From positions 1 through 60,471 of IMG/VR virus record IMGVR_UViG_3300028025_003339: 60,471 nucleotides of DNA; one strand, written 5' to 3'. This document shows, piece after piece, positions 7,397 through 27,719 of this stretch. Numbering within the stretch: the first letter of the stretch is position 1; every line of letters begins with the position of its first letter. The notes under the pieces are model-generated. The model was not told where the DNA came from, made no database searches, and worked only from the letters and a program-made list of their open reading frames with translations. The stretch is from a virus. The position numbers were made by a program, and so were the translations under genes.

Positions 7397-7402
7397 AATT
7401 TA

Positions 7403-7410
7403 TATTTATA
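7403..7410 (+). promoter_or_regulatory. TATTTATA element before tail paralogue 2
   Basis: TATTTATA sits four bases upstream of the ATG at 7415, in the short gap after tail paralogue 1. The same element precedes other genes in this window at similar spacing. It could act as a promoter or in translation initiation, and sequence alone cannot decide which. Confidence 0.35.
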
Positions 7411-7414
7411 AGAT

Positions 7415-8521: not shown

Positions 8522-8535
8522 AAAATAATTAAATT

Positions 8536-13234: not shown

Positions 13235-13886
13235 ACACATTGACGACTCTATTGAATGGGGTAAACTTGAGGTGTCTAAATTAAATCAAGACATTCTTAA
13301 TATTCACGGAATAACAAGTAATAAAGTTAAATGTTTTCTTAATAACATTTGTAATATCGATAACGCCACATATCTCGAAGTCGGTGTTTTTAGAGGTGCA
13401 ACTTTTTGTTCTGCGGTATATGGTAATGACATTTACTCAATAGGTATTGACAACTTTATGTCCCCCAACTTAACACCAAAAGGTGTAAGTCAAAAAATTG
13501 GCAACTACTATAAACATAATATTGACATACCACCACAAGAGGAATTTTTATTAAATGTTAAAAGACATTGTAATGTAAATAAAACATCCATATATAAAAC
13601 TGATTATCAAACCTTTGATTTTAAATCATTACCAAATGTTGATATCATTTTTTATGACGGAGAAACAAAATTTCATGACCAATATGTTGCGTTAACAAAC
13701 ATGTTACCAATATTTTCTAAAGAAACCATAGTCATTATGGATGATTGGAATTGGAATAGTGGTGCCTTTGAAAAGTTTGTTAGTGATAACAACTTATTTA
13801 TTAGCCATTATAGGGAATTATATACATCAGGTGAAGACTCCGAAGATTTTTGGAATGGACTGGGTATATTTTTAATTGAGAGATAG
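13221..13886 (+). CDS. Class I SAM-dependent methyltransferase, 221 aa
   Basis: YLEVGVFRGATFCSA is motif I of Rossmann methyltransferases, DIYSIGIDN gives the acidic post-I residue, and DIIFYDGETKFHDQ and ETIVIMDDWN resemble Methyltransf_24-type enzymes, which include sugar O-methyltransferases. I chose the ATG at 13221, which overlaps the upstream stop by 14 bases, over a TTG at 13197. The N-terminal half of the fusion at 18397-19728 belongs to the same family. It may methylate a glycan or a tail component. Confidence 0.7.
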   Translation: MDLIKHIDDSIEWGKLEVSKLNQDILNIHGITSNKVKCFLNNICNIDNATYLEVGVFRGATFCSAVYGNDIYSIGIDNFMSPNLTPKGVSQKIGNYYKHNIDIPPQEEFLLNVKRHCNVNKTSIYKTDYQTFDFKSLPNVDIIFYDGETKFHDQYVALTNMLPIFSKETIVIMDDWNWNSGAFEKFVSDNNLFISHYRELYTSGEDSEDFWNGLGIFLIER

Positions 13887-14047: not shown

Positions 14048-14932
14048 ATGAGAAAAACAATCACAATGCTATCGCTAATGTTAGCACTATTGTTTACTAC
14101 CACTATGTCATTTGGACAATATAGTAGTAGTGCAATTCAGAAAGGTTCGGAACAATCCTTAAACGTTCGAACGGACTCGGTCCCTAATCAATTACAAGAA
14201 ATCGTTGTTACAGCAAAGAAAGTACCACTAATGACCAAAGTTGGTCCTTATGGTCAACCACTTTGGACAACAATGAGAATGTTTGCATCCACAAGAGTTT
14301 ATGTGATGAACCCTCCAGGTACGGCAATGTACGAGAAGTGGTTTGACATTAGACAAAGAAGAAATGGACCAGCTCAAATCAGAATGAGAGATGAGTTTAC
14401 ATTTGGTTTAGGTAAACGACTTCAATTGGATATGTATTCACACACTGTTTATGATGGATACAATGGAGACAAAGAATTCAAATGGAGAGGTTTCTCTTGG
14501 GAATTCCGTTATGCTCTTGCTGATTGGGGTAAGTTATGGGGTAACCCAACCCTATATTGGGAAACAAAAATGTTAGATGGTCGTTGGGGTATCGAGCCTA
14601 AATTATTATTGGGAGACAGAGTTGGAGAAAGAGGTATTTGGGGATTCAACGCAATCTATGAAGGTAATTTATCAAGAATCAAAGAACTTCGTGAAGATGA
14701 ATACGCATACACTGCATCGTACGCTAACATCATCAATAATGATTTAACTTTAGGTGTGTCACATATGTTTAGATACAACGATTTTGATGGAGGTTCACAA
14801 GAATGGTATCTTGGACCACTACTTCAATATCGATTTAATAACAAGGCTTATTTGAATGTTGAACACATGCCAGGTCTTAATCAAGACGCAAAACAATCAA
14901 GAACCACAATTATATTTGCATGGAGATTTTAA
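14048..14932 (+). CDS. Outer-membrane beta-barrel-like protein with signal peptide, 294 aa
   Basis: Residues 1-24 form a Bacteroidota-style signal peptide ending MSFGQ. EIVVTAKK (51-58) resembles the plug/TonB-box-adjacent segment common in Bacteroidota outer-membrane receptors. The rest consists of alternating, aromatic-rich strands (LYWETKMLDGRWGIEPKLLL and similar) and ends in FAWRF, a typical C-terminal aromatic beta-signal for BAM insertion. It is likely a small outer-membrane porin- or receptor-like barrel made from a phage gene. It overlaps the next gene, an inner-membrane permease-like protein, by 13 bases. Superinfection exclusion or altered nutrient uptake are possible roles, both inferred. 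Confidence 0.7.
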   Translation: MRKTITMLSLMLALLFTTTMSFGQYSSSAIQKGSEQSLNVRTDSVPNQLQEIVVTAKKVPLMTKVGPYGQPLWTTMRMFASTRVYVMNPPGTAMYEKWFDIRQRRNGPAQIRMRDEFTFGLGKRLQLDMYSHTVYDGYNGDKEFKWRGFSWEFRYALADWGKLWGNPTLYWETKMLDGRWGIEPKLLLGDRVGERGIWGFNAIYEGNLSRIKELREDEYAYTASYANIINNDLTLGVSHMFRYNDFDGGSQEWYLGPLLQYRFNNKAYLNVEHMPGLNQDAKQSRTTIIFAWRF

Positions 14933-15927
14933 TCAAAGGACAAGAGTTTCTTGTCTACTTAATATTCATTATGTTCGTAACAGGTATCCTCAAAGAAAGA
15001 GGATACCTTATGGACATCTTCAGACTGCTTGAACAAAAAGTTAAGTCTAAAAGAATGGTAGTATTTTTAGTATCACTATTTGGCGGTATCTTACCAATCC
15101 CTGGTCGTGTTGCATTATCGGCATCAATGTTAAACAGCATTGCTCCTGTTGATAATAAGAAACGTAAGAAGTTTGGTATCATTGATTATTTGGCAACACA
15201 TCATTACTATCTATGGTCACCATTAGAGAAGACGGTTATCATCCCAATGGCTGTGTTAAGTTTAACTTATATGCAATTCATGTCATATATTTGGCCATTA
15301 CTTTTAATATCGGTATTGTATGTTACATATTATATCCTATCATTAAAAGATGATGAAATTGACATTGAAGTTAAAGATGAACCAATTAATATACAAAACA
15401 TAACCATGGTGGTTATACCATTCTTGGTTACCATACTAATGTGCGTATTTCTTACTGAATACTATTTTGGTTTCTTTACTGCATTCACAGCGTGGTTAGT
15501 ATATTACTCTAAGAGTTGGAATAAAATACTTAGTTACATTGATTGGGAATTAATATGGATTGTTGGTTTAGTTATTATTTTAGGTAACCTTGTTGGGTCC
15601 TATTATAGTGTGATTGAATCATATATTAAACAATATAGTAAACCTGAATATATTTTGGTTGTCTCTGTTATATCATTCCTTTCATCATTTATGTTAGGTT
15701 CTTCAGCCAAGTACGCGAGTATTGTTAGTTTACTAACGAGTGTGTTTGGTATGCAGTACTTTGTTTTATTCTTTACATTGGAATATTCAGCGTACTTGAT
15801 TTCACCGTCCCATAAGTGTTTACCGATTGGTCAAAAGTATTTTCATACTGGATTTATGACTTATTTGAAAGCACTGATTGTGTGGATATCTTTAATGATG
15901 ACGTACGCACTTTTAACAATTATATAG
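14920..15927 (+). CDS. Polytopic inner-membrane protein, DUF401/permease-like
   Basis: The 335-residue protein has about eight to ten hydrophobic helices. GGILPIPGRVALSA (about residues 47-60) and ISPSHKCLPIGQKYF near the C-terminus match the pattern I associate with DUF401 permease-like proteins of the ion-transporter superfamily. The ATG at 14920 lies inside the end of the outer-membrane barrel gene, so the two are coupled and may form an envelope-spanning pair. Membrane transporters are unusual phage cargo. The substrate is unknown, and the family call is from memory of motif layout. Confidence 0.55.
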   Translation: MEILIKGQEFLVYLIFIMFVTGILKERGYLMDIFRLLEQKVKSKRMVVFLVSLFGGILPIPGRVALSASMLNSIAPVDNKKRKKFGIIDYLATHHYYLWSPLEKTVIIPMAVLSLTYMQFMSYIWPLLLISVLYVTYYILSLKDDEIDIEVKDEPINIQNITMVVIPFLVTILMCVFLTEYYFGFFTAFTAWLVYYSKSWNKILSYIDWELIWIVGLVIILGNLVGSYYSVIESYIKQYSKPEYILVVSVISFLSSFMLGSSAKYASIVSLLTSVFGMQYFVLFFTLEYSAYLISPSHKCLPIGQKYFHTGFMTYLKALIVWISLMMTYALLTII

Positions 15928-15978: not shown

Positions 15979-16449
15979 ATGGAAAAAATAACATTAAAAT
16001 TAGGAGACGTTCTACAATTAGAAAGTGAAATAAACGGATACACGGATCCACAAAATGGAGAACAAGTATTTGAAGGTTTTAGTAAACAAAACCTGTCGAT
16101 TATTTTGAAATATGAGTTGAGTGACTTTTCAACAGAACTTAAAGGTGAGAGAAGTAAAGTCGAAACTTTAAGAGATGAGTTAATCAAAAAATATGGAGAA
16201 GACGATGGTAATGGTGGTATCTTAGTAAAAATGTATAATGAAGTGAAAGATGAGGAGGGTAACGTAGTTGGTAAAGTCGTTAACCCACAATATCTTGAAT
16301 TCGATAAGGAATATGGTTTACTTTTAAATCAAGAAATTGAAATCGAATATCCCGAAATCACTAAAGAAGATTTAAAGGATGCTGGTAAAACCAAAGACAA
16401 ATATCAGGTTTTATTTAAATTAATCAAAAAAGAAAAAGGGACTTTATAG
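15979..16449 (+). CDS. Uncharacterised phage protein, 156 aa
   Basis: An acidic, Lys/Glu-rich soluble protein without recognised domains. It ends in KEKGTL and its last codons form the left arm of the terminator hairpin at 16435-16456. It is the last plus-strand gene before the converging glycan operon. A short AT-rich gap separates it from the permease gene. Confidence 0.6.
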   Translation: MEKITLKLGDVLQLESEINGYTDPQNGEQVFEGFSKQNLSIILKYELSDFSTELKGERSKVETLRDELIKKYGEDDGNGGILVKMYNEVKDEEGNVVGKVVNPQYLEFDKEYGLLLNQEIEIEYPEITKEDLKDAGKTKDKYQVLFKLIKKEKGTL

Positions 16450-16461
16450 TCCCTTTTTTTT
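16435..16461. terminator. Bidirectional rho-independent terminator
   Basis: AAAGGGACT (16435-16443), loop TTAT, AGTCCCTTT (16448-16456), followed by a T run. The A run on the left arm provides a U tract for the opposite strand. It stops both the plus-strand gene ending at 16449 and the long minus-strand operon ending at 16444, and it overlaps the last codons of both. Confidence 0.85.
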
Positions 16462-17292
16462 ATATTCATCAATATAGTCATATAGATTTACAATCGGTTG
16501 CCAATCTAAAATTAATCTGGCTAGTGTACTTTCACATAAAGTTTCTTGAGCTTCACCTGGCTTATCTTCAGTATAAACTCTATCTTTTTTAAACATATCG
16601 GCAACCTCGTTCAACGAGAAATTTTGACCTCTACCCAACTCAAACGTGTGACCCCACATTTCTTTATCCATTATCTTAATTAACGCATTAACAATATCAT
16701 CAACGTGTGTGAAGTCCCTTCTCTTTGAACCATCACCATATATTGTTAATGGTACATTATCATCATATTGTTTCTCCCATCTACCAATCACTGTACTATA
16801 ACCACCATCTTTTAAATGATAGGGACCATAGACATTGTAAAAGCGAGTTACTGATGACTTTAAATTAAAATGTTCCTGATAAAGTTTAACAATCTCCTCA
16901 CCAACATCTTTACTAAATGTATATGGGTTTTTAAACTTACCACTATGATGTGAACTACTTCCCGCATAAATTAATGGTATGTCATTCTTAACACAATATT
17001 GTGCCACATTTAATGTGCCATTTGTATTTGTTTGAAAATATTCAACAGGATGTTTAAATGATGGCTGTATTCTTGCGATTGCTGCTAAATGAAACACAAT
17101 ATCGTATTTCACATCATCTAATATCGATAAGTTTCTAACATCACCACATATATAATTTGCACCATCTTGATGGTTAGAACTAAAACCACTTAAGTAGTTA
17201 TCTAACGATGTCACCTCGTGACCATCTTTTAATAGTCTTTTAATTAAATTAGTACCAACAAATCCCGCACCTCCTGTAACTAGTATATTCAT
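16444..17292 (-). CDS. NAD-dependent sugar epimerase/dehydratase (extended SDR)
   Basis: VTGGAGFVG (residues 5-13) is the GxxGxxG NAD-binding motif. D52-V-R binds adenine, HLAAIAR is the family strand, and Y124/K128 with Ser112-114 form the catalytic site. FYNVYGP and the C-terminal half match UDP-glucose 4-epimerase-like and related nucleotide-sugar enzymes. At 282 residues it is slightly short for GalE (about 330). It is the final gene of the minus-strand operon, and its start overlaps the upstream stop (TAATG). It probably makes a nucleotide sugar for the neighbouring glycosyltransferases. Confidence 0.85.
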   Translation of the reverse strand: MNILVTGGAGFVGTNLIKRLLKDGHEVTSLDNYLSGFSSNHQDGANYICGDVRNLSILDDVKYDIVFHLAAIARIQPSFKHPVEYFQTNTNGTLNVAQYCVKNDIPLIYAGSSSHHSGKFKNPYTFSKDVGEEIVKLYQEHFNLKSSVTRFYNVYGPYHLKDGGYSTVIGRWEKQYDDNVPLTIYGDGSKRRDFTHVDDIVNALIKIMDKEMWGHTFELGRGQNFSLNEVADMFKKDRVYTEDKPGEAQETLCESTLARLILDWQPIVNLYDYIDEYKKKGL

Positions 17293-18395
17293 TAAATTGT
17301 ATTTCTTATAACTATCTTCATGTTACCAACCTCATATTCACCAGGTTCATAATATGGTATAGATAGTCTTATTTTTTGTAAAGTGTATAAATCTTCATCC
17401 GTAAATGGTGAAGTTTCATAAATCATAACGTCAACAGTGTCTGTAAGGGTAAATTTCGACCTTAAATCATATCGTGTATTCTTTTGTTCATTCTCAATAT
17501 AATCCTCAGGAATCTCCCCTAAATCGATTTTATCAAAGAAAAGCTCAATCTCATACATTCTACTTTTATTTCTGGTTGTTAAACCCATTGAGAATGTTTT
17601 ATATTTGAATTCCTTTTCTTCCCAATACCTAATCTCATTAAATGCTGAGAATGGTACACCCCATTTTCTAACAAAGTTTCTATTTGAACAAACCTCGTAT
17701 ATTCTTCTTTGGTCTTTATAATCATCACTAAATCTGGATGTCTGAGAAACAAAATGGTAGGTAATTGCACAATCGGTAGTTTTAAGTTCGTATCCCTTTA
17801 GTTTTGCACGAACTAAGAAATCATCATCCTCACAGAAACAAGGAACAAAACTAAATCCGTCGAAACCACCGACATCGTCAAACATCTTCTTATAACCACT
17901 CATAAAGAAAACCGCACCATCGTAAATGTTACATTTGTCTTTATTCTCTTTAACATATTGTTCAAATAAAGTATAGTTGAAATTATGAAATGATGAACCT
18001 AAATCTAATAACACTTTACCCGGCCTCTTATGTCCTTTAAAAATAGGAGGTTCGACTGTGGTATATGATAATAAAGTATTTGGGTTCTCATCTAATAACC
18101 TATCTAAGTTCTCTAAGAATTGTTCACCGATGACCATGTCATTGTGTATTAAAACTAACTTCTCGGTGTCAACTAGTTTAATTCCTGCATTATATGTGTC
18201 AGAAAATGTTAACCTTTCATCGTCGTGAATAAATGAAAGATTATCGTCCTCTAAAGATTCTAACCATTCTTTGGTTCCATCATATGAACCGCCACTACTA
18301 ATAACTAAAGGTGCATTTGGGTACACATCTCTTAATCGATTATAACATTCTTTTGTTAAATCTAATTTATTGTACACCGCGAGTACGAATGTCAT
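17292..18395 (-). CDS. Family 2-like glycosyltransferase (GT-A), 367 aa
   Basis: TFVLAVYNKLDLTKECYNRL at the N-terminus and SYDGTKEWL are typical GT2 nucleotide-binding segments. LVLIHNDMVIG supplies the DxD-like metal site, and FVPCFCEDDDFLVRAKLKGY resembles the ED acceptor-site motif. I chose the ATG at 18395, which follows the upstream TAA by one base. An in-frame ATG at 18422 would overlap the upstream gene by 26 bases. The C-terminal 130 residues are an extension without recognised domains. It is a cytoplasmic enzyme in glycan assembly. Confidence 0.8.
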   Translation of the reverse strand: MTFVLAVYNKLDLTKECYNRLRDVYPNAPLVISSGGSYDGTKEWLESLEDDNLSFIHDDERLTFSDTYNAGIKLVDTEKLVLIHNDMVIGEQFLENLDRLLDENPNTLLSYTTVEPPIFKGHKRPGKVLLDLGSSFHNFNYTLFEQYVKENKDKCNIYDGAVFFMSGYKKMFDDVGGFDGFSFVPCFCEDDDFLVRAKLKGYELKTTDCAITYHFVSQTSRFSDDYKDQRRIYEVCSNRNFVRKWGVPFSAFNEIRYWEEKEFKYKTFSMGLTTRNKSRMYEIELFFDKIDLGEIPEDYIENEQKNTRYDLRSKFTLTDTVDVMIYETSPFTDEDLYTLQKIRLSIPYYEPGEYEVGNMKIVIRNTI

Positions 18396-18396
18396 T

Positions 18397-19728
18397 TTAA
18401 TTTCTTGTGTATCCTTCTTCATCGTGTATACATGTTATTTTATTTATTAAGAGACTATTCATTTTATTTAAATTTATCCACTCACTAACCCGATCCCACA
18501 AATCCCCATCAGAAGGTAAACCAACAACGCCGGTCTCTTTAAAAATGTCTCTATAACGTAATGGTATTTGTTTAAAATTCATACAAACAGATGAATGTAT
18601 CAAACCACCACAACCAGGTGCCGTCCAAATAACTTCACCAGCACTAGCCGGTGGACTAGGTAAAGTAGATGAATGATATTTTGATTTAGTGAATATAAAT
18701 GGTGCCGACGTCCTAACAATAACTTCAAAGATTGATGACAGGTGATTATCTTCCCACATATCATCATGGTCCAAATGACAAATATATTCGAACCCCTGAC
18801 TCAACGCCACATCGACACCATGGTTAGTTGCGTTAACCCCACCATATGACCAAATTGCCCACTTATTTTTATACCTATCTCTTTCCTCGGCAAATGGTAA
18901 ATTCTCATAATATATTTTATCAGGTTCAATTATTGACGTTGCTATTTGAATAAACTCATCGTTATCTTCATACCTATCACCAATTAAAAATACCTTGTAA
19001 TCTTTAAACGTTTGATTTTTAATTGAGGTTAATGACCTCGTTAAGTAGTCAATTGTTTTCCCATCCTCTCTTCTAAATGTTGGGATAACAATACCGATTT
19101 TTAGTTTTGATTTTTTTCTCAATATGTAACAATTACCATCATTTACATCCTCTGGTCTTGCTTTGAATACATTAGGTAACGTACCAATAATCTCATAATT
19201 ATCTCCTATCGTACTTACTAACTTATCTACAGCAATTTTAACACCCGGACTATTCTGTGGATCATTATAATCATCGAATATAATATATCCATTCTCTTTC
19301 ACCAAAGGAGAATACATGTCGAAATCTTTTCTAGCACCAAATTCCGAATGGTCACCATCAATAAAAAGAATATCAATTTGATTAACACACTTTAAAACAT
19401 TATTATAAGTTTCATCTGTTTGTGAGTTACCTCTAACATATGTGTATTGGTTATTGTGTACATTAAGATTTTTAACATTATTAACAACAACACTTGGGTC
19501 AATGGGATTACCTAAATCAATACTTAAAACGTTTGTCTTCGGTCTTTGTAATAAAAGACATGCCGAACCACCAGCATAACAACCAATCTCAACATAGTTA
19601 ACTAAATAATCTGATGGATATGTGTTGGCAATATCATATAGGATATGATAGTGATGGTGAAATGTTTTATTATCGATTTTATCCGATATACTTTTAGTTA
19701 AATTTAATGATTCTTCTGTGTGTTTCAT
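18397..19728 (-). CDS. Fusion of SAM methyltransferase and family 2-like glycosyltransferase, 443 aa
   Basis: The N-terminal half (about 1-205) contains YVEIGCYAGGSACLL (SAM motif I), VLSIDLGNP, ILFIDGDHSEFGARKD and YIIFDDYNDP, a Methyltransf_24 layout. The C-terminal half (about 210-443) starts with KIGIVIPTFRREDGKT, followed by NQTFKDYKVFLIGD and ICHLDHDDMWE (DxD-type), a GT-A glycosyltransferase. A two-domain enzyme could transfer a sugar and then O-methylate it, capping chain growth. It sits head-to-tail with another glycosyltransferase. Confidence 0.8.
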   Translation of the reverse strand: MKHTEESLNLTKSISDKIDNKTFHHHYHILYDIANTYPSDYLVNYVEIGCYAGGSACLLLQRPKTNVLSIDLGNPIDPSVVVNNVKNLNVHNNQYTYVRGNSQTDETYNNVLKCVNQIDILFIDGDHSEFGARKDFDMYSPLVKENGYIIFDDYNDPQNSPGVKIAVDKLVSTIGDNYEIIGTLPNVFKARPEDVNDGNCYILRKKSKLKIGIVIPTFRREDGKTIDYLTRSLTSIKNQTFKDYKVFLIGDRYEDNDEFIQIATSIIEPDKIYYENLPFAEERDRYKNKWAIWSYGGVNATNHGVDVALSQGFEYICHLDHDDMWEDNHLSSIFEVIVRTSAPFIFTKSKYHSSTLPSPPASAGEVIWTAPGCGGLIHSSVCMNFKQIPLRYRDIFKETGVVGLPSDGDLWDRVSEWINLNKMNSLLINKITCIHDEEGYTRN

Positions 19729-19733
19729 GTGTA

Positions 19734-20459
19734 TTAAATTGTTCCTGAGTCAACAAATATATTTTGACCGGTAATTGAACTTGCGGAGTCTGACGTTAAA
19801 AATGAAATTGTTTTAATAACAGATTTTATTTCCGTAGATTGTTTTAATGATGTTCTATTATAGATTTTATTTTTTTGTTCTTCGGTAAGTGATTTACTCA
19901 TTTCAGTTTCCATAAAACCGGCAACCACACAATTTGAACGAATACCTTTAACGCCCCATTCTCTTGATGTGTTCTTCGAAAAAGCTTCTAGTGAACCTTT
20001 TGTCGATGCGTACATAGATAGTCCCTTATAACCCGTGTGAACACTTATACTTGATATGTGTACGATTGAACCTTTAGTCTTATTAAGGATGAAATTTCTA
20101 ATTGCACACTTAGTTAACATTATCGGAGCAAACACATTAACCTTATACATCTGTTCGAGTTTTTGTGGATTGGCGTTCGTGATAATATCGTCGTAAGCAA
20201 TTGCAGCGTTATTAACAAATGAATCTAGTTTTACTTTATTGGTTACCAAGTAGTCATTTATTTCTTTAGTCAGATCTTCGTATGTTTCTAAGTCACCTAA
20301 AAAATGATGGAACGTTTCTGGATACTTTGAAGATAACTCATTTAATTCATCACTCTTAGTTCTACTAATACCATAAACGAAATTACCACACTCTAATTGG
20401 TCTTTTGTAAACTCCAAACCAACCCCTCTTGAAACTCCAGTAACTAATAACTTTTTCAT
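19734..20459 (-). CDS. Short-chain dehydrogenase/reductase, FabG-like
   Basis: TGVSRGVG (7-14) binds the cofactor, VNNAAIAY is the NNAG-type strand, S137 with Y150-x3-K154 form the active site, and the C-terminal ITGQNIFVDSGT matches 3-oxoacyl-ACP reductases. The 241-residue length is standard. It overlaps the ANL ligase gene by four bases and lies two genes from an acyl carrier protein, so reduction of an ACP-bound beta-keto acyl group is plausible. It could equally reduce a nucleotide-sugar keto group. Confidence 0.8.
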   Translation of the reverse strand: MKKLLVTGVSRGVGLEFTKDQLECGNFVYGISRTKSDELNELSSKYPETFHHFLGDLETYEDLTKEINDYLVTNKVKLDSFVNNAAIAYDDIITNANPQKLEQMYKVNVFAPIMLTKCAIRNFILNKTKGSIVHISSISVHTGYKGLSMYASTKGSLEAFSKNTSREWGVKGIRSNCVVAGFMETEMSKSLTEEQKNKIYNRTSLKQSTEIKSVIKTISFLTSDSASSITGQNIFVDSGTI

Positions 20460-21487
20460 TTTCTAATAATTTTACCTGTAGTGTTGGTTTCTAACTTATC
20501 GACTAAATTTATTTTCATCGGAACTTCATATGAATTTAAAATACTCTTTAAGTCCATCTTAATTTCCTTTATTGTTTTATCATGTTTTAAGACAATATCC
20601 GTTGATACTATATGACCCATCAATGAATTTTTAACACCATAAACATATGAACTATTAACATAATCCAATTTATTTATTTTGTTCTCAACCTTAATAGGGT
20701 TTACCTTTACTCCACCCACATTTATCATATTGGACTCTCGACCAATAATCTTAAAGTGAACATCATCAACCCATTCAACCTTATCTCCTGTATAGTACCA
20801 TTCATCATTAATATTCTGTAAAACTATTGAATGATGAACAACGATTTCGTCATTTATTATCTTAACAAAAGTACTATTTTTTTCTGTAATTTTAAAGTAT
20901 TCGTTGTTTGAAGAAAACAATGTGCCGAATTCCGTTGAAGCGTATATATTGGTTATTTTACAATTAGGGAAAGATATCCTCAATTTGTTGAATAACTCCT
21001 CATCCGATGGTTCACCACCTAAAGTTAATTGAACAACCCTTTCGAATTTAACACCACCATCCATTAATAACCTATAAAAGGTAGGTGTACCTGATATGTG
21101 AGTTATGGTATTGAACCCCTCAGTAATCTCTTTTTTAGATTTACCAAATAGATTGACAATGGTAGCATTATTAAGATAGGATTGTAATATAACTTGAGAG
21201 CCTGCTATTTTATTAAAATCATAACTCAACCCCCAAATACAATCTTTTAATTTATCATCAACCTTAATATTTCTAGTTAACGAATGGTATGTGTGATTTA
21301 TTTTTTTAGGTTCACCTGTCGTACCAGAAGTTTCAAACTCGATTTCGTTATCCCTAAATGATTTTATAAATGATAATATACCCAACTCAACATTAGATAA
21401 TTCAATGTCTAGTTTTTCGTTATTTAAGTAACGATCTAAATCGGAATATTTTATCACATTCCTATCTATTAGGAATGTTTTATCCAT
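20456..21487 (-). CDS. Short ANL-superfamily acyl-activating enzyme (acyl-CoA/acyl-ACP ligase-like)
   Basis: The core motifs are complete: A3 TSGTTGEPK (53-61), A5 YASTE, A7 YTGD, A8 GRESNMINVGGVKV and a C-terminal TTGKIIRK with the catalytic Lys. At 343 residues it lacks about 100 N-terminal residues of full-size ligases, like short MenE-type enzymes. It overlaps the ACP gene by eight bases, which makes direct loading of an acid on to that ACP the simplest hypothesis (compare DltA and DltC). The acid is unknown. Seeing this in phage DNA is unusual. Confidence 0.8.
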   Translation of the reverse strand: MDKTFLIDRNVIKYSDLDRYLNNEKLDIELSNVELGILSFIKSFRDNEIEFETSGTTGEPKKINHTYHSLTRNIKVDDKLKDCIWGLSYDFNKIAGSQVILQSYLNNATIVNLFGKSKKEITEGFNTITHISGTPTFYRLLMDGGVKFERVVQLTLGGEPSDEELFNKLRISFPNCKITNIYASTEFGTLFSSNNEYFKITEKNSTFVKIINDEIVVHHSIVLQNINDEWYYTGDKVEWVDDVHFKIIGRESNMINVGGVKVNPIKVENKINKLDYVNSSYVYGVKNSLMGHIVSTDIVLKHDKTIKEIKMDLKSILNSYEVPMKINLVDKLETNTTGKIIRK

Positions 21488-21704
21488 TAATTTTCTCAGT
21501 TATTTCTGAAACCTTGGTTATTAACCCATCACTAAAAATGTCCACACCATACTCACTCTCAATCTCAACTGTTAGTTCCGCTAACATTAAACTATCAAAA
21601 CCAATATCATCCCTAAGGTTTGCATTGTTATCGATATTTGATATTTCATCAAGTCCATTACCTGATAAGACTTCATTAATTATTTCTAATAAACTCCTCT
21701 TCAT
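21480..21704 (-). CDS. Acyl carrier protein
   Basis: 74 acidic residues with the carrier motif GFDSLMLAEL. S38 in DSL is the phosphopantetheine attachment site. Length and helix layout match the family. It would need a host phosphopantetheinyl transferase, since none is seen in the window. It is sandwiched between a hexapeptide acyltransferase (29-base overlap) and the ANL ligase (8-base overlap), so a dedicated activated-acyl relay is strongly suggested. Confidence 0.88.
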   Translation of the reverse strand: MKRSLLEIINEVLSGNGLDEISNIDNNANLRDDIGFDSLMLAELTVEIESEYGVDIFSDGLITKVSEITEKING

Positions 21705-22233
21705 ATTTTAAAAATTTTTTTAAACGATTACCTACTTTTTTTGATGGATTACCCGAATATACACTAAATTCTTCACAATCTTTTGTGATTAAACTTTGAG
21801 CGTAAATGGAAACACCAGTTTCAATTGTGACATTTGGTAAAATTACACAACCACATCCAATGATACTATGTTTTTTAATGTGAACAATTCCATTAGTTAC
21901 TTTCTTATATTTGTTTGGTATCATCGGGTTTGTCATTGACATCCCCGTATAGTCATCGCTACTACTATAAATTGAAACCCTTCCCGATATCCCAACAAAA
22001 TCTTCTAATATCATTTCACCTTTCCCAATCAATGAAGCATAACAACCGATGTGTACGTAGTTACCTATCTTTAATGATGTTCCTGGAGACAGAATTGCAA
22101 AATCATCAATCCTCACATTATTCCCTATCTCAATTAAATGAGCAGAATAGATGGACACCTTATCGGATATCAATACATTTTCCCCAAAATGTTTTAATCC
22201 TAAATTTTCTAATTGTTCTTTAGTTAGATACAT
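21676..22233 (-). CDS. Left-handed beta-helix (hexapeptide repeat) acyltransferase
   Basis: The 185-residue sequence consists of hexapeptide turns such as VSIYSAHLIEIGNNVRIDDF, IGNYVHIGCY, IKKHSIIGCGCVILPNVTI and TGVSIYAQSLI, ending in SGNPSKKVG, as in sugar O- or N-acetyltransferases. A loop insert near YSSSDDYTGMSM follows the pattern of WbbJ- or VioB-like enzymes. Overlap with the ACP gene suggests an acyl-ACP donor instead of acetyl-CoA. The acceptor is probably an amino sugar or glycan hydroxyl. Confidence 0.8.
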   Translation of the reverse strand: MYLTKEQLENLGLKHFGENVLISDKVSIYSAHLIEIGNNVRIDDFAILSPGTSLKIGNYVHIGCYASLIGKGEMILEDFVGISGRVSIYSSSDDYTGMSMTNPMIPNKYKKVTNGIVHIKKHSIIGCGCVILPNVTIETGVSIYAQSLITKDCEEFSVYSGNPSKKVGNRLKKFLKYEEEFIRNN

Positions 22234-22236
22234 AAA

Positions 22237-22950
22237 TTACGCTTCGAAATTATGACTACTAACCAATCCACCGTCATAATTACCTTTATATTTTAAAACA
22301 AAATTATCATATACTACACCCATATAACTTAATATAATGTTACCCTGTATGTGTTTGGTATATTCCTCATAAAGATGTTTGGACATCTCATCGTACATTG
22401 GATGGTGAGTGTTCCAACCAAAATACTTTGCAGAACAAACACCGATTGAATTAACATCTACACCTAAATTACTAAAAATTTTTACATATTCGTCTTTGGA
22501 ATTTCTTATACTTTCGTATGAATATTCCCACCTTGGTTGAGATGATGCCAAATATTCAGATACGATGTTATTCCGATCACCATCATACCAGTCAGTCGTT
22601 GTGAATAAACATTTATCGTCAGTACATTTGTTTACAAATTTAACATAATCTTTCCAAAGAGTTATAACATTTGAATCACAAATAAAAATATTTTTAAACT
22701 CAGATAACTTTGGTATGAACTTAAGTGGAAAACAATTAATTTCGGATATTATTAATCTTCTTTCTCTTAAGTCAGTTACATTAACATAATCTGTAATGAC
22801 ACTAACCATATCCCAACCCATATCCAATAAAGGTTTTTCATACTCTTTGTTGTCAGTAACATAAATTGTCTTCATGTTATCCGGTAAGTTTTTTGGTGGC
22901 GGATTTAATTGTTCATACCCCCAAAAATGTTTTGTTAAATAGATGTTCAT
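22237..22950 (-). CDS. Putative glycosyltransferase-like protein (DUF616-like?), 237 aa
   Basis: No confident family. Segments YVTDNKEYEKPLLDMGWDMV and FKNIFICDSNVITLWKDYVK are reminiscent of the DUF616/TOD1-type glycosyltransferase-like proteins, which carry a short DxN or DxD in that position. It overlaps the DegT-like gene by four bases (ATGA) and lies in the glycan operon, so a transferase role fits the context. Treat the family as a guess. Confidence 0.35.
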   Translation of the reverse strand: MNIYLTKHFWGYEQLNPPPKNLPDNMKTIYVTDNKEYEKPLLDMGWDMVSVITDYVNVTDLRERRLIISEINCFPLKFIPKLSEFKNIFICDSNVITLWKDYVKFVNKCTDDKCLFTTTDWYDGDRNNIVSEYLASSQPRWEYSYESIRNSKDEYVKIFSNLGVDVNSIGVCSAKYFGWNTHHPMYDEMSKHLYEEYTKHIQGNIILSYMGVVYDNFVLKYKGNYDGGLVSSHNFEA

Positions 22951-23591
22951 TGTTTGTATATTTCAAATTTACTCAAATCAGGATATGGTAATTCTAAATC
23001 CATGTTATGTTTTTTAGTACCATCTATGTTGTAGAACTGGTTCATTAACAACATACCCCTCGCGGCTAATTCAGGCATCATATAAAAATTCCAACCTAAC
23101 ATATCTAAGTTATCATCATGGTACGAACATTCTCTTCTACCACTATATCTTGCTCTCTTAAACCAAAGATAAGCCTCGTGACTATCTGTTAGTATAGCAC
23201 CACCTTTACTCAGTTTAAAATGTTTATAAGGACCCGTAAAGGATACACACATATGCGTTCCTTGTTCGTACATATCTGCAGTGAATCTTAATGCACTATC
23301 CCAAACATTACTTCCTTTTAAATTATATGCACCCTTAATTGTTTTCCCCTCCACAGGTTCAAAGTTCACCTTTAACCCTGCGTGAATAATTTCACAAGGT
23401 ACAGATGGGTAAGTTCTACATGGTATTGAAATGGATTTAGATGTTATTGTTTTTGTAATGTTCTTTTCATAATAAAGAGCTAAAAATAAAGCGTTGCTCA
23501 TGTTATCTAAAGTAACCACATATTTGGCACCAGTATAGTCTGATAATGCCTTTTCGAAATCCTCCGTTATTTTGTATATTCCGTTTGCCAT
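22947..23591 (-). CDS. Truncated DegT/DnrJ-like PLP aminotransferase homologue, 214 aa
   Basis: The sequence matches the N-terminal PLP fold of DegT/DnrJ/EryC1 enzymes: FEKALSDYTGAKYVVTLDNM, NVWDSALRF (D98 would contact the pyridine nitrogen) and VSFTGPYKHFKLSKGGAILT, where a Lys (K123, K126 or K129) would carry PLP. The family is normally about 370 residues and this protein ends after about 210, so the C-terminal domain is missing. It may be a compact active form, a half-enzyme or a non-catalytic relative. An active form would make an amino sugar for the acyltransferase. Confidence 0.65.
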   Translation of the reverse strand: MANGIYKITEDFEKALSDYTGAKYVVTLDNMSNALFLALYYEKNITKTITSKSISIPCRTYPSVPCEIIHAGLKVNFEPVEGKTIKGAYNLKGSNVWDSALRFTADMYEQGTHMCVSFTGPYKHFKLSKGGAILTDSHEAYLWFKRARYSGRRECSYHDDNLDMLGWNFYMMPELAARGMLLMNQFYNIDGTKKHNMDLELPYPDLSKFEIYKQ

Positions 23592-23596
23592 TGATA

Positions 23597-24235
23597 TTAA
23601 ATTGAACTATAAAATTTATTTTGTTTCTCCTGTTTGTTAATTGTTTTGTGATGTTGGATACAATATTCCTCATCTAATGGAAATGATGAAAATTTCTGAC
23701 CACCTATGATTCTTTCGTGTACCTTACCATACCAACCCATACCTTTACGATATATTCTTCCTTGTGCATCTGGAAAGTTGATGTATCCCTTTTCGTTAAC
23801 CACCCATCCCCATTTTTTAATGTGTTCTTCGGTTATATCTTGTACCGTATTAATTCTAGGAACAAATATTAAATCAACATCTTTATTCATTTCTAAAATA
23901 GTGTGAATATTTTGTACCATATATTCACTTATCATTTCATCGGCATCTATTTGATAAATGTAGTCACCGGTACAATATCCATTCAATATGTTTTTCCAAT
24001 CCGCAAAGTTATCATTCCAATCAAAACATCTCCATGTTTGAACGTTAGGTAATTTATTGTATGGTAATAAGAATTCTAAAACTTCTTTGTTACCATTCTT
24101 TTCATCATAGAGAACTACTATCTCGTCTATGGGTCTCTTGAGTTTCAATAAGAATGGAACCAGAGTCTTTATCTCCTCCAATTCGTTGCAAACTGTTATT
24201 GCGTAACTTATCTTCATATTTTTGTTTATTTTCAT
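23597..24235 (-). CDS. Family 2-like glycosyltransferase, 212 aa (WaaE/KdtX-like)
   Basis: ISYAITVCNELEEIKTLVPF is a GT2 N-terminus, YIYQIDADEMIS gives the DxD motif, and WGWVVNEKGYINFPDAQGRI followed by WYGKVHERI resembles the lipopolysaccharide GT2 subgroup. The protein is short, so it is a single-domain enzyme. The start could also be the ATG at 24217 (MKISYAITV). It overlaps the small upstream reading frame at 24105-24308. Confidence 0.75.
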   Translation of the reverse strand: MKINKNMKISYAITVCNELEEIKTLVPFLLKLKRPIDEIVVLYDEKNGNKEVLEFLLPYNKLPNVQTWRCFDWNDNFADWKNILNGYCTGDYIYQIDADEMISEYMVQNIHTILEMNKDVDLIFVPRINTVQDITEEHIKKWGWVVNEKGYINFPDAQGRIYRKGMGWYGKVHERIIGGQKFSSFPLDEEYCIQHHKTINKQEKQNKFYSSI

Positions 24236-24308
24236 TTAACGTTAATTCCTCACATTTCCAACACCACTCTCTATCGTCCGTGTCCCAACTATGTCTTTCA
24301 CATCTCAT
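24105..24308 (-). CDS. Small Cys/His-rich protein overlapping the glycosyltransferase start
   Basis: 67 residues with CERHSWDTDDREWCWKCEE near the N-terminus, a C-x2-H...C-x2-C arrangement that could bind zinc. Its ATG overlaps the stop of the upstream gene (ATGA), which favours real translation. The last 30-40 residues run out of frame through the start of the GT2 gene and may be non-functional tail. No family is recognised. Confidence 0.45.
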   Translation of the reverse strand: MRCERHSWDTDDREWCWKCEELTLNENKQKYEDKLRNNSLQRIGGDKDSGSILIETQETHRRDSSSL

Positions 24309-24571
24309 GCTACATTATCTCCTATTCTTAACCAATGGTTTAAATAATCAATACCATGATTACTACCACCATTTATTCTTCTTGTTAGTTCTTGAATAAT
24401 ATTATTATCAATTTCTCTAGATATTTCCTCTGACATCATATCAATACTATGGTATGAATTTAGTTGTTCAATAGGTTCAGGCTGCCAATGAGCACGTAAT
24501 CTCCTGACCATACCTTGAATCTCATTAGATTTAATAGTTATCCCATGAAAAAATTTAAATTCTCTAACCAT
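24305..24571 (-). CDS. Small uncharacterised protein, 88 aa
   Basis: I chose the ATG at 24571, which overlaps the upstream stop by eight bases. The protein begins MVREFKFFHGITIKSNE and contains EEISREIDNNIIQEL, a helix reminiscent of segments in phage head proteins, though I cannot assign it. Its first residues (FKFFHGIT) resemble those of its upstream neighbour (FKFFQGKT), which hints at a shared N-terminal element. Confidence 0.5.
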   Translation of the reverse strand: MVREFKFFHGITIKSNEIQGMVRRLRAHWQPEPIEQLNSYHSIDMMSEEISREIDNNIIQELTRRINGGSNHGIDYLNHWLRIGDNVA

Positions 24572-24824
24572 TTTGTCTCTCCCTTGCAAATAATTTAAAT
24601 ACGTTATCGTTATCTGTGAATGACATTTCAGAACTACTAGTTGGACTTAAATGTATACTACATTCGTTAGGACCAGTGGCAAATACAACCGGTTCATTGT
24701 TCCCGAACTGAAAACAAAATTCAACATCCTCAGGAATAAATGATTGTCGTGTTAATGTTAATATTTGTGTTGGTTCCAATTCCAAAAACAAATTAGTTTT
24801 TCCTTGAAAAAATTTAAATCCCAT
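24564..24824 (-). CDS. Small uncharacterised protein, 86 aa, beta-rich
   Basis: No family is recognised. It begins MGFKFFQGKTNLFLELEP and looks like an all-beta domain by its alternating pattern. It shares the FKFFxGxT start with the following gene and lies between the GT-B enzymes and the GT2 gene in the glycan operon. Confidence 0.5.
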   Translation of the reverse strand: MGFKFFQGKTNLFLELEPTQILTLTRQSFIPEDVEFCFQFGNNEPVVFATGPNECSIHLSPTSSSEMSFTDNDNVFKLFARERQNG

Positions 24825-24828
24825 AACT

Positions 24829-26076
24829 TTATTTAATTTTAGTAAGTTTAGGTAGTATAAGTTTCTTTTCCTTCGGTATGGATGAGAATGGTGATATGAT
24901 ATCCTTAAACTTATCTTTCATTTTCTCCATTGAGAACTTTTCTAAATTCTCCTCCTTTAATATTTTAGACTTCTCTAAAAATTTATCATAATCTTTGTAG
25001 ACTAATTTAAAAACCTCAACAACCTCATTATAGTTTGCAGTAAACCACTTTGAATCTTTAAGAATAAAAGTGTCGACAGCACTTTCATGAACATCAGTCA
25101 ACCTACCACCAATCATTATTGCTTTATCCATTGGTAAGAAATCCTTATGTCCTGACCAGTTAGAAGCAATAACTGGTTTACCTGTCATGCTAAACTCTAA
25201 TAATGGTCTACCAAATCCCTCACCTTTTGTGATGGACACCATTGATTTAATCTTAGGGTGGTTATATAAATTATTCATCTCATCATTAGATAAATCACCG
25301 AATAACAAATAGATAGATGGAGGATTTTTTACACCCTTAACTAACTCCTCAATTCTTTTTCTAAAATTTTCTCTTTCTTTAATAGAGAACGATGCTGATG
25401 ATGTTTTCAATACAAGACCTGGTCTATCTTCGGTATCTTTAAATGCTTCAGCAAAACATTTAATTAACATACCGACATCTTTTCTATCTTGACCGGTGTC
25501 ACCCTTCAACCAATGACCAACAAACAAATATGCAAAATCTTCTTTAATATCGATATCGATGTTATCATATTTATCATTGAATATTTGTGGGTCAACACCT
25601 TCAAATAAAACTTCTATTGGTGTAGTTATCTTATATTGTTTAATTAACTTACCAGTATTTTTTTCATTCTCATTATAAACTGTTTGTAATAAAACATCTT
25701 TTGAAAATGACGATGTTGTTATAACCAAATCCATTCTATTACATCCGTCCACCCATTCTTTAGGTGCAACCGTTGTTTCAATACCTGCAGTAATTCCAAT
25801 ATTAAACTTACCAACTTTTTGGAATTCGTTTGGAACCGTAACCTGAACATAGATGTCTGGTGTTTGATTTAAACTTGTAATGATATTGGACTCAATCCAT
25901 TTATGAAAAAAATTATCCTCTAATGCAGTTGTTGGAGTACTTCCCCAAGAACAACTATCAATCTTAATATCAAACAAGTCCATTTCATACAATGTTTGTA
26001 ATAAATCTCTTGAGTGGGCACCATACCCACTTCTTGTTTTCACTGGTCCTCTAAATAATAAAAACGGTCTACTCAT
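24829..26076 (-). CDS. GT-B glycosyltransferase (family 4-like), 415 aa
   Basis: The protein starts with FRGPVKTRSGYGAHSRDLL, like the Gly-rich N-terminal loop of GT4 enzymes. YLFVGHWLKGDTGQDRKDVG and MVSITKGEGFGRPLLEFSMT with TGKPVIASNWSG give the C-terminal nucleotide-sugar domain with the E-x7-E motif. The length is standard. It abuts a second GT-B enzyme (one-base gap), so the pair probably adds successive sugars. Confidence 0.85.
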   Translation of the reverse strand: MSRPFLLFRGPVKTRSGYGAHSRDLLQTLYEMDLFDIKIDSCSWGSTPTTALEDNFFHKWIESNIITSLNQTPDIYVQVTVPNEFQKVGKFNIGITAGIETTVAPKEWVDGCNRMDLVITTSSFSKDVLLQTVYNENEKNTGKLIKQYKITTPIEVLFEGVDPQIFNDKYDNIDIDIKEDFAYLFVGHWLKGDTGQDRKDVGMLIKCFAEAFKDTEDRPGLVLKTSSASFSIKERENFRKRIEELVKGVKNPPSIYLLFGDLSNDEMNNLYNHPKIKSMVSITKGEGFGRPLLEFSMTGKPVIASNWSGHKDFLPMDKAIMIGGRLTDVHESAVDTFILKDSKWFTANYNEVVEVFKLVYKDYDKFLEKSKILKEENLEKFSMEKMKDKFKDIISPFSSIPKEKKLILPKLTKIK

Positions 26077-26077
26077 A

Positions 26078-27439
26078 TTATATAATCTTGTATAAATTAA
26101 ACTTATCTTTTGGTTTAAAATTTTCTAAGGTTTGTTCAATACCCTCAATCATCTTATCACACATTATTTTATTTGATAGATTGTTTAACATAAACTCTCT
26201 ACCTTTTAATCCTTTTTCTTTTCTTTTCTTTTTACCCAACTTATATATTTTCATAATCGAATTTGCAACATCGTTGTCGTTAACTCTGTCATCAAATATG
26301 TAAGGTGTTGGTACTGAACCATTTAAATTAATTGCTGACGACCATACCGGTTCAACCCATTCTCCATGTAATGTAGAACCATGTGTTCTTTTATCGTGTA
26401 ATGAACCAAATGTAATGTAGTTTTCTGCGGTATAATCAAATCCACATTGGTCTTGTAAACCACCCGTAACATTAACAATAATTGGTACACCCGCCATTAA
26501 ACTTTCGGCAGTCGTTAACCCGAATCCTTCATTGTTTGCAATGTTAATTGTGCAATCAACACCATTATAAATCTCATTTAATTTATCCTGTTCTAATTTT
26601 AAGTTAGTAAACTTAACATCATAATCTTTACAAATGGCATCAACTACTGCAGGTAAGTCCGTACCATTCTCATCGACAGGATTTGTGTGCATTAATAATA
26701 AACATTTCTCAGCCTTTTCTTTTGGTAACATATCACAGAATAATTTAAACGAATAAATTACATCACTCGGTTGTTTCCTTCTAATGTTTCTGTTATTATA
26801 AAATAAAACAAAATCATATTTCTTATCACCATGAATTAAATTATTAACATCATCTGATATTCTGTCTAATGGTTTAAACAAATCTGGATTAATTCCATGA
26901 GGTACGTAACTAATTTGCCAATCTTCTAAAGGTTTAAATGTTACTTTATCTGTCCTTTTACCAACACGATGTACGATACCATATGTTTGTTTAGATATAC
27001 AACCTAACCAATCACAAGATTCATAGAAATCTCTATTATATTGTGGGTCGGGTAAATCATCCCATATGTGATAATATAATATTGGGGTGTGTTGTCTTAT
27101 CTCATGCTCCACATCATATAACCATTGCCAATAGTGTGGATCAGTAAAGTGTAAAATTGCGTCAGGTTTCTCCTCCTCAATTAATTTACGAAGTATACCG
27201 ACATCACCATAACCATTGTATGGTATGATTTTTAAATTAGCATCCTTAACTCCAGTTCTTGCTCTAACATCATCATTGATGTCAACGATTTTTCCATATT
27301 CAGGATGCTTTATAGCTGCACCTAATTGTACCCAATCGTATTTGTGTAATGTACCCAATACAATTTCCTTTGACATTGTGGCAATACCCGATGTCATTCT
27401 TAAATCGTCAGATAATAATAATATTTTCTTCTTCTTCAT
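26078..27439 (-). CDS. GT-B glycosyltransferase (family 4-like), 453 aa
   Basis: KKILLLSDDLRMTSGIATMS is the N-terminal Rossmann strand and acceptor loop. ILYYHIWDDLPDPQYNRD and NNEGFGLTTAESLMAGVPII (E-x7-E) complete a GT-B fold. I chose the ATG at 27439, just after the upstream stop at 27441. The more distal ATG at 27472 would overlap the RHH gene. With its neighbour it makes up the first enzymatic part of the minus-strand operon. Confidence 0.85.
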   Translation of the reverse strand: MKKKKILLLSDDLRMTSGIATMSKEIVLGTLHKYDWVQLGAAIKHPEYGKIVDINDDVRARTGVKDANLKIIPYNGYGDVGILRKLIEEEKPDAILHFTDPHYWQWLYDVEHEIRQHTPILYYHIWDDLPDPQYNRDFYESCDWLGCISKQTYGIVHRVGKRTDKVTFKPLEDWQISYVPHGINPDLFKPLDRISDDVNNLIHGDKKYDFVLFYNNRNIRRKQPSDVIYSFKLFCDMLPKEKAEKCLLLMHTNPVDENGTDLPAVVDAICKDYDVKFTNLKLEQDKLNEIYNGVDCTINIANNEGFGLTTAESLMAGVPIIVNVTGGLQDQCGFDYTAENYITFGSLHDKRTHGSTLHGEWVEPVWSSAINLNGSVPTPYIFDDRVNDNDVANSIMKIYKLGKKKRKEKGLKGREFMLNNLSNKIMCDKMIEGIEQTLENFKPKDKFNLYKII

Positions 27440-27440
27440 T

Positions 27441-27638
27441 TTAAAATTTAGATCCTGTCGTTGCCAATCCAACGTGATTGTTTATTGTGTTTCTAAAGTT
27501 TTCATCTTTATTGTATAAATCCATAGAACGATTTACTAATTTTTGTAAATTAATAGACCCCTCGATTGATTTAATTTTAAATTTCTTGTAAACGTCATCT
27601 AATATATTGACGCTTGTTAGTTTTTGTTCTGTTTTCAT
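27441..27638 (-). CDS. Small ribbon-helix-helix-like DNA-binding protein, 65 aa
   Basis: KLTSVNILDDVYKKFKIKSI and NLQKLVNRSMDLY follow the strand-helix-helix pattern of Arc/CopG regulators. I chose the ATG at 27638. As first gene of the glycosyltransferase run it is a natural candidate for autoregulation of the operon. The upstream DNA holds AT-rich inverted repeats (TATATATAAG...GTATATAT) that could be operator sites, but that is speculation. Confidence 0.6.
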   Translation of the reverse strand: MKTEQKLTSVNILDDVYKKFKIKSIEGSINLQKLVNRSMDLYNKDENFRNTINNHVGLATTGSKF

Positions 27639-27672
27639 GTTAATAATATATACACTTATATATATCAAGTAT

Positions 27673-27715
27673 AAAAAAAATATCGGACAAAACGAAATGA
27701 TTCTGCCCGATATTT
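27673..27715 (-). terminator. Rho-independent terminator after the MGCGCKK gene
   Basis: On the minus strand AAATATCGG (27715-27707) pairs with CCGATATTT (27686-27678) across a 20-base loop, followed by a run of eight T. It would separate the tiny gene at 27720-27881 from the RHH gene and glycan operon, so the operon probably has its own promoter between 27640 and 27680. Confidence 0.7.
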
Positions 27716-27719
27716 TTAC

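What the first reader, a model, noticed from the sequence alone, without database searches (positions are those of the whole stretch)
16444..27439. Phage-borne operon for acylated-glycan synthesis
About 15 minus-strand genes run with overlaps from an RHH-like regulator to an NAD-dependent epimerase. They encode two GT-B and at least three GT-A glycosyltransferase domains, a DegT-like PLP protein, a hexapeptide acyltransferase, an acyl carrier protein, a short ANL ligase, an FabG-like reductase and a methyltransferase-glycosyltransferase fusion. Seen directly: motifs, overlaps and one terminator. Known: P. syringae flagellin glycosylation uses a viosamine island with aminotransferase, acyltransferase, ACP-type reductase and methyltransferase genes. 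Inferred: the phage makes an amino sugar, loads an acid on its own ACP and transfers it to the sugar, to decorate its virion or to alter host surface glycan and block rivals.
Basis: partly seen in the sequence, partly recalled or inferred. Interest (0 to 1): 0.9.

Follow-up and report, generated by a model that had tools for sequence, protein, structure and literature searches.

The report
Phage locus with swappable sugar-coat genes
A large phage, probably of Bacteroidota bacteria, carries a fixed set of sugar-transfer genes around a slot whose sugar-making genes differ from phage to phage, much as bacteria swap the genes for their surface sugars; here the slot holds a self-contained kit that looks made to attach an acid to an amino sugar.

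Summary
Sixteen minus-strand ORFs (16444-27668) encode two GT-B and three GT-A domains, an epimerase, a DegT-like protein, a hexapeptide acyltransferase, an acyl carrier protein, an ANL ligase, an SDR and a methyltransferase-glycosyltransferase fusion. New here is the architecture. In 42 IMG/VR relatives the outer genes are conserved under purifying selection, while the 5.2 kb between two glycosyltransferases (18402 to about 23595) is absent. In six relatives examined, homology stops at the same bases; 30 complete relatives hold 19 other gene sets or none. Two relatives 99% identical beside the slot carry unrelated cassettes. The window's acyl-ACP module recurs, carrier-ligase-reductase in order, in nine other phage contigs. 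Its DegT is a roughly 214-residue form found in at least 582 viral contigs. The host is probably Bacteroidota; cultured Flavobacterium phage immuto carries the same locus. Most likely a cytosolic, acylated-amino-sugar glycan is built on a protein, probably of the virion: no flippase, polymerase or DNA-hydroxymethylating enzyme was found. Target and chemistry are inferred. Verdict: real, new variant of phage glycan islands.

The parts
27676..27717 (-). terminator-like hairpin just upstream of the operon; stem sequence differs but pairing is kept in most relatives read
27441..27638 (-). A: small RHH-like putative regulator (ATG start taken; first ORF start is TTG 27668); an AT-rich near-palindrome precedes it
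   Evidence: homologues in relatives, 34% to immuto gp182; no Pfam hit
26078..27439 (-). B: GT-B glycosyltransferase, chassis
   Evidence: 61-92% in relatives, dN/dS 0.05-0.10; 47% to immuto gp181
24829..26076 (-). C: GT-B glycosyltransferase, chassis
24564..24824 (-). D: small protein of unknown function with N-terminal FKFFxG motif
24305..24571 (-). E: small FKFF-motif protein resembling a segment of T4-type major capsid protein Gp23; fast-evolving
24105..24308 (-). F: small ORF overlapping the start of G; may not be a gene
23597..24235 (-). G: GT-A glycosyltransferase, chassis; last chassis gene before the cassette
18402..23595 (.). swapped cassette: no nucleotide homology to six relatives examined, flanks 74-88% identical
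22947..23591 (-). H: short DegT-type PLP protein (214 aa), member of a large viral family
22237..22950 (-). I: unknown, possibly a GT-A-like enzyme (weak)
   Evidence: no Pfam or PHROG hit; 53% homologue in L094; poor AF2 model
21676..22233 (-). J: hexapeptide-repeat acyltransferase
21480..21704 (-). K: acyl carrier protein with DSL serine
20456..21487 (-). L: short ANL adenylating ligase (MenE/DltA-like core, N-terminal part missing)
19734..20459 (-). M: FabG-like SDR ketoreductase
18397..19728 (-). N: methyltransferase-GT-A fusion; two separate genes in L093 and L094
17292..18422 (-). O: GT-A glycosyltransferase, chassis
16444..17292 (-). P: NAD-dependent nucleotide-sugar epimerase/dehydratase family, chassis (62% to immuto gp170)
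16433..16458 (-). operon-end terminator

Best explanation
This is a glycan-synthesis locus of a T4-like phage lineage that probably infects Bacteroidota. A conserved chassis (putative regulator A, GT-B pair B-C, GT-A enzymes G and O, epimerase P) would build or extend a short glycan in the cytosol, and a swappable cassette between G and O would supply the distinguishing sugar. In this phage: ligase L activates a small acid with ATP and loads it on carrier K; reductase M reduces it, for example a 3-oxo to a 3-hydroxy acyl group; acyltransferase J moves it to an amino sugar, which the DegT-type protein H may help make; N methylates and transfers the sugar. The glycan is most likely attached to a protein, probably of the virion, giving each phage strain its own coat. 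Cassettes are exchanged between phages by recombination in the flanking glycosyltransferase genes. Shown: gene content, motifs, chassis/cassette structure, recent exchange, purifying selection, module mobility. Inferred: enzyme order, acyl identity, sugar, target, benefit.
For: Family matches and intact ACP, ligase and SDR motifs. Chassis in 42 IMG/VR loci without the window's cassette. Homology ends at 18401-18402 and resumes at 23590-23608 in six relatives. Thirty complete relatives show 19 cassette contents, including a KASIII+SDR+acyltransferase+DegT+methyltransferase set, a UDP-galactopyranose mutase/deacetylase set and a C-methyltransferase set. L007 and L011 are 98.9% identical right of the slot and 93.6% left, with nothing shared inside. 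The module recurs in phages with distant chassis: L094 has H 77% but C 41%. dN/dS 0.05-0.14 for most chassis comparisons and 0.06-0.28 for cassette genes, synonymous sites near saturation. No polytopic membrane protein in the operon or cassettes. E resembles the capsid protein (E=1.2e-14). No Shine-Dalgarno signal, A-rich leaders, excess Bacteroidota-type promoters in G001 and the window; cultured Flavobacterium phages carry the locus.
Against: No biochemical evidence. No sugar nucleotidyltransferase or clear 4,6-dehydratase here, so the sugar precursor must come from the host or elsewhere in the genome. H lacks the DegT C-terminal domain. The phage late-promoter-like motif (AAGTATTTAT) is absent upstream of the operon, so late co-expression with virion genes is not shown. 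GT-B enzymes could act on host lipid-linked glycans instead. The window is a 60 kb fragment; other genes may matter.
Confidence: 0.55

Rival explanations
1. The locus alters the host's surface polysaccharide during infection (superinfection exclusion), by adding phage-specified sugars to lipopolysaccharide, capsule or cell-surface glycoproteins.
For: Glycosyltransferases of families common in O-antigen synthesis. Zaragoza-Solas et al. propose this for glycosyltransferases in the hypervariable island of pelagimyophages (PMC7029224). Cassette diversity also fits competition between phages.
Against: No flippase, polymerase, bactoprenol-linked transferase or other polytopic membrane protein in the operon or any cassette; host machinery would have to be used. 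The benefit is short-lived for a lytic phage.
Confidence: 0.27
2. The sugars are attached to phage DNA as in T-even phages, to resist restriction.
For: Phages of this size often hypermodify DNA (own knowledge); glycosyltransferases and a thymidylate-synthase-family gene (31174-32382) are present.
Against: One thymidylate-synthase-family gene per record in eight records, of the thymidylate-synthase type with FNIASY asparagine in the window, so no dCMP hydroxymethylase was seen; the glycosyltransferases match PF00534/PF00535, not T4 alpha/beta-GT models. Records are incomplete.
Confidence: 0.07
3. The cassette genes make a small acylated metabolite or regulate the host rather than a glycan coat.
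For: ACP, ligase and SDR also occur in small-molecule pathways (for example petrobactin or cispentacin carriers).
Against: Cassettes lie between glycosyltransferases in all complete relatives, and alternative cassettes contain sugar-specific enzymes such as UDP-galactopyranose mutase.
Confidence: 0.05

Closest known systems
Hypervariable host-recognition cluster of pelagimyophages (PMC7029224)
   Same: T4-like aquatic phages with a variable island that mixes tail fibres and glycosyltransferases
   Different: There described as a non-syntenic island of SAR11 phages; here a defined chassis with one slot, cassette edges at gene boundaries, dedicated acyl-ACP enzymes, probable Bacteroidota hosts
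Viosamine island of Pseudomonas syringae flagellin glycosylation (PMC3927599)
   Same: Aminotransferase, hexapeptide acyltransferase, SDR reductase, ACP, methyltransferase, glycosyltransferase; cytosolic protein glycosylation. Sister cassettes also have the KASIII (vioS) step
   Different: Phage-encoded; ANL ligase in place of KASIII in this window; short DegT; no VioT-size transferase; target unknown
Clade-specific glycosylation clusters of Megavirinae giant viruses (PMC10117803)
   Same: Virus-encoded rare amino-sugar clusters differing between clades, proposed to aid competition for one host
   Different: Eukaryotic viruses, fibrils chemically analysed; no acyl-ACP ligase module reported in the passages read
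Virion glycosylation of mycobacteriophages (Freeman et al. 2023, cited in PMC12619734)
   Same: Phage-encoded glycosyltransferases decorating capsid and tail proteins
   Different: I know of no comparable sugar-making or acylation cassette there (own knowledge); no homology tested
Flavobacterium phage vB_FspM_immuto_2-6A gp182-gp169 (NC_055915)
   Same: Same chassis order A-B-C-G-cassette-P-O; short DegT 87% identical
   Different: Different cassette (full-length DegT plus PglD-like acyltransferase, no ACP or ligase)

Membership tests
Viosamine-type acyl-amino-sugar island | sugar aminotransferase (vioA, ~372 aa) | tested here: inconclusive
   H is DegT-fold but 214 aa, without the C-terminal domain; full-length DegT occurs in sister cassettes
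Viosamine-type acyl-amino-sugar island | hexapeptide acyltransferase, ACP and SDR reductase (vioB, acp, vioR) | tested here: met
Viosamine-type acyl-amino-sugar island | 3-oxoacyl-ACP synthase III (vioS) | tested here: not met
   absent in the window, ligase instead; present in sister cassettes such as L003
Viosamine-type acyl-amino-sugar island | glycan on flagellin or other protein with acylated viosamine | not testable with these tools
   needs mass spectrometry
Hypervariable glycan/host-recognition island of T4-like phages | T4-like phage backbone | tested here: inconclusive
   Gp23 in relative G008 and T4-like tail-fibre paralogues; no capsid gene within the 60 kb window
Hypervariable glycan/host-recognition island of T4-like phages | variable gene content with glycosyltransferases near tail fibres | tested here: met
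   tail-fibre paralogues at 6257-9645
T-even type DNA glucosylation | dCMP hydroxymethylase | tested here: not met
   (incomplete genomes)
Phage serotype conversion (gtrABC) or Wzx/Wzy O-antigen locus | membrane flippase, bactoprenol transferase or polymerase | tested here: not met
   hydropathy scan; only an unrelated 8-TM DUF401 gene lies outside the operon
Phage virion glycosylation system | glycan on virion proteins | not testable with these tools
   only indirect hint: capsid-like gene E

The most novel reading that the evidence does not exclude
Phages of this lineage have 'serotypes': a conserved glycosyltransferase chassis with exchangeable sugar cassettes (including a phage-borne ligase-ACP-reductase-acyltransferase line and a virus-associated short DegT enzyme) that give each strain a different glycan coat on its virions, swapped by recombination during co-infection, with a capsid-like adaptor or acceptor gene encoded in the operon.
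Probability: 0.4. Interest if true: 0.92.

Novelty: new variant of a known kind. Interest (0 to 1): 0.8.

Why it matters
Bacteria diversify surface sugars by swapping the middle of a conserved locus. If phages do the same for their own particles, virion surface chemistry becomes a fast-evolving trait like tail fibres, with consequences for adsorption, competition and recognition. The self-contained acyl-loading module would be a phage-borne carrier-protein assembly line. Because a cultured Flavobacterium phage has the locus, the long-standing question of what phage glycosyltransferase islands decorate can be tested directly.

Tried and rejected
Host-DNA chimera: rejected, the chassis is contiguous in dozens of independent contigs and in a complete isolate genome. 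Pelagibacter host: suggested by low GC and cyanophage-like tail proteins, but the absence of Shine-Dalgarno sites, the promoter type and the immuto relatives point to Bacteroidota. DNA hypermodification: weakened. Pseudogene reading of the short DegT: rejected, most of 86 homologues have about the same length and share invariant residues. Single-protein scans with L and I found nothing because only near-exact peptides are searched. Bacterial donor of the module: a genome scan with H gave only five metagenome-assembled contigs, none shown to carry the full module. AF2 of gene I failed (pLDDT 43). No plasmid carries H. I first noted that Rhodothermus phage RM378 has the B-C pair; a check found only distant B- and G-like genes there.
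Full report
What is there. The window is a 60,471-base IMG/VR viral record. Between two terminator-like hairpins (16433-16458 and 27676-27717) lie sixteen minus-strand ORFs, nearly all overlapping or a few bases apart. Letters used below run from the 5' end of the operon: A putative RHH-like regulator, B and C GT-B enzymes, D-F small proteins, G GT-A, H DegT-like, I unknown, J hexapeptide acyltransferase, K ACP, L ANL ligase, M SDR, N methyltransferase-GT-A fusion, O GT-A, P epimerase.

Chassis and cassette. A scan of IMG/VR with C found 42 loci at 63-87% identity. Across these loci the order DUF192 - A - B - C - (D,E,F) - G ... O - (P) and the opposite-strand genes beyond it largely recur where the contig reaches. 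None carries an orthologue of the window's cassette genes H to N. Blastn against six relatives shows flanking identity of 74-88% that stops at window position 18401-18402 and resumes at 23590-23608, that is, at the start of O and the stop codon of G. Thirty relatives with both edges visible have 19 different gene contents by a 40% identity clustering; three of them are empty. Contents include methyltransferase - full DegT - methyltransferase - hexapeptide acyltransferase - PhyH - KASIII - SDR - GT2 (L003, L007 and others); epimerase - GT2 - methyltransferase - deacetylase - PhyH - GT2 - UDP-galactopyranose mutase (L005, right edge not seen); and epimerase - phosphorylase - cytidylyltransferase - C-methyltransferase (L041). 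L007 and L011 are 93.6% identical left of the slot and 98.9% right of it, with nothing in common inside; L007 and L010 are 95-98% identical up to the slot and then differ. These are recent exchanges.

The acylation module. A scan with M, then with an alignment of L, found K-L-M in order in nine other contigs (L182-L190, partly the same contigs as L091-L094 and L180), seven of them with J and all with an H homologue upstream. One contig is 334 kb long. In L094 the module sits directly after G in a chassis only 41-50% identical to the window's, while H is 77% and M 66% identical, so the module moves separately from the chassis. N is two genes in L093 and L094, a fusion in the window. The ACP serine, the ligase's TSGTTG loop and C-terminal lysine, and the SDR triad are conserved; J in L094 has an internal deletion. 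dN/dS is 0.06-0.28 for module genes and 0.05-0.14 for most chassis comparisons; synonymous sites are near saturation, so these are rough.

Short DegT. H matches only the PLP domain of sugar aminotransferases (GDP-perosamine synthase, probability 1.00, TM-score 0.57 over the query; AF2 pLDDT 84). The profile alignment puts K123 at the PLP lysine. Only five bacterial metagenome contigs and no plasmid had it. It is a coherent virus-associated family of unknown activity.

Host. Genes of the window and of relatives G001, G003 and G008 show little or no Shine-Dalgarno excess and A-rich leaders; Bacteroidota-type promoters (TTTG-N-TANNTTTG) are in excess in G001 (20 against about 5) and in the window (11 against 4.1; one of 100 shuffles reached 11), though not clearly in G003. 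The capsid protein of G008 is closest to Rhodothermus, uncultured, Flavobacterium and Microcystis phage records. The complete isolate genome of Flavobacterium phage immuto 2-6A has the locus as gp182-gp169. Host is therefore probably Bacteroidota; this is inference for the window itself.

How it probably works. L plus K plus M resembles acid activation, carrier loading and beta-keto reduction; J would pass the acyl group to an amino sugar. In sister cassettes KASIII plus SDR, without an ACP of their own (motif search), would reach the same kind of acyl group from host malonyl-ACP. P. syringae has vioS, vioR, acp and vioB in the island that makes 3-hydroxybutyryl-modified viosamine, which is transferred to flagellin glycan (PMC3927599). 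Convergence on an N-(3-hydroxyacyl) amino sugar is my inference. The operon and all cassettes lack polytopic membrane proteins, unlike O-antigen or serotype-conversion loci, so the glycan is probably built directly on a cytosolic acceptor. The thymidylate-synthase gene is of the ordinary type and single, so DNA is a weak candidate.

A clue to the acceptor. Gene E and its homologues resemble residues 341-391 of the T4-type capsid protein; a profile of E finds that protein as the only long ORF in the sequence then held (E=1.2e-14; pairwise score 95 against 30 +/- 4 for shuffles). E evolves fast (dN/dS 0.57-0.68 against two relatives). Two relatives have a further small gene with a tail-fibre-like VGIGT-N-P motif in the same place, and these proteins share an N-terminal FKFFxG tag. 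They could be acceptors, adaptors or decoys. I cannot tell.

Regulation. A hairpin with changed but still paired stems precedes A in most relatives read, followed by an AT-rich repeat that could be the operator of A. The phage's late-promoter-like motif AAGTATTTAT, found before tail and endolysin genes, is absent here, so timing is open.

Comparison and verdict. The nearest known things are the hypervariable islands of pelagimyophages (PMC7029224), bacterial acyl-amino-sugar islands, and giant-virus glycan clusters (PMC10117803). None of them, as far as I read, describes a chassis with exchangeable cassettes in phages, or a phage ligase-ACP acylation module. I rate it a new variant of a known kind; architecture about 0.95 certain, virion target about 0.5.

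Noticed in passing
window 24305-24824; L013 6175-6354; L014 2181-2360; L077 16849, 18381, 19174: Family of small proteins with N-terminal FKFFxG tag followed by pieces resembling virion proteins (capsid segment, tail-fibre motif) or unknown sequence.
   Followed up: partly
window 967, 41255, 41448, 50040, 55243; G001, G003, G008: Probable phage late-promoter motif AAGTATTTAT (GTATTTAT in 26 upstream regions against about 1.5 expected) beside an early, Bacteroidota-like TATATTTG motif.
   Followed up: partly
window 9692-13886: Conserved cluster (86-98% identical in G001 and G003) with a radical SAM protein (11196-12197), a methyltransferase (13197-13886) and three genes without Pfam hits; possibly another modification pathway.
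   Followed up: no
window 14920-15927: 8-TM DUF401/citrate-transporter-like membrane protein, 73-96% identical in relatives, unusual cargo for a phage.
   Followed up: no
window 6257-9645: Three tandem paralogues related to 'sericin 1 precursor-like' proteins of cyanomyoviruses.
   Followed up: no
window 45483-47621; 33904-35796: B12-binding radical SAM protein and a PcfJ-like protein.
   Followed up: no
L066 3660-15870 (relative G008, 269 kb): Array of 22 tRNA genes plus a tmRNA gene on a relative that carries the KASIII cassette.
   Followed up: no
L180 11064-12068: By eye, a sulfotransferase-like domain fused to a nucleotidyltransferase-like domain next to the acyl-ACP module; not tested.
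   Followed up: no
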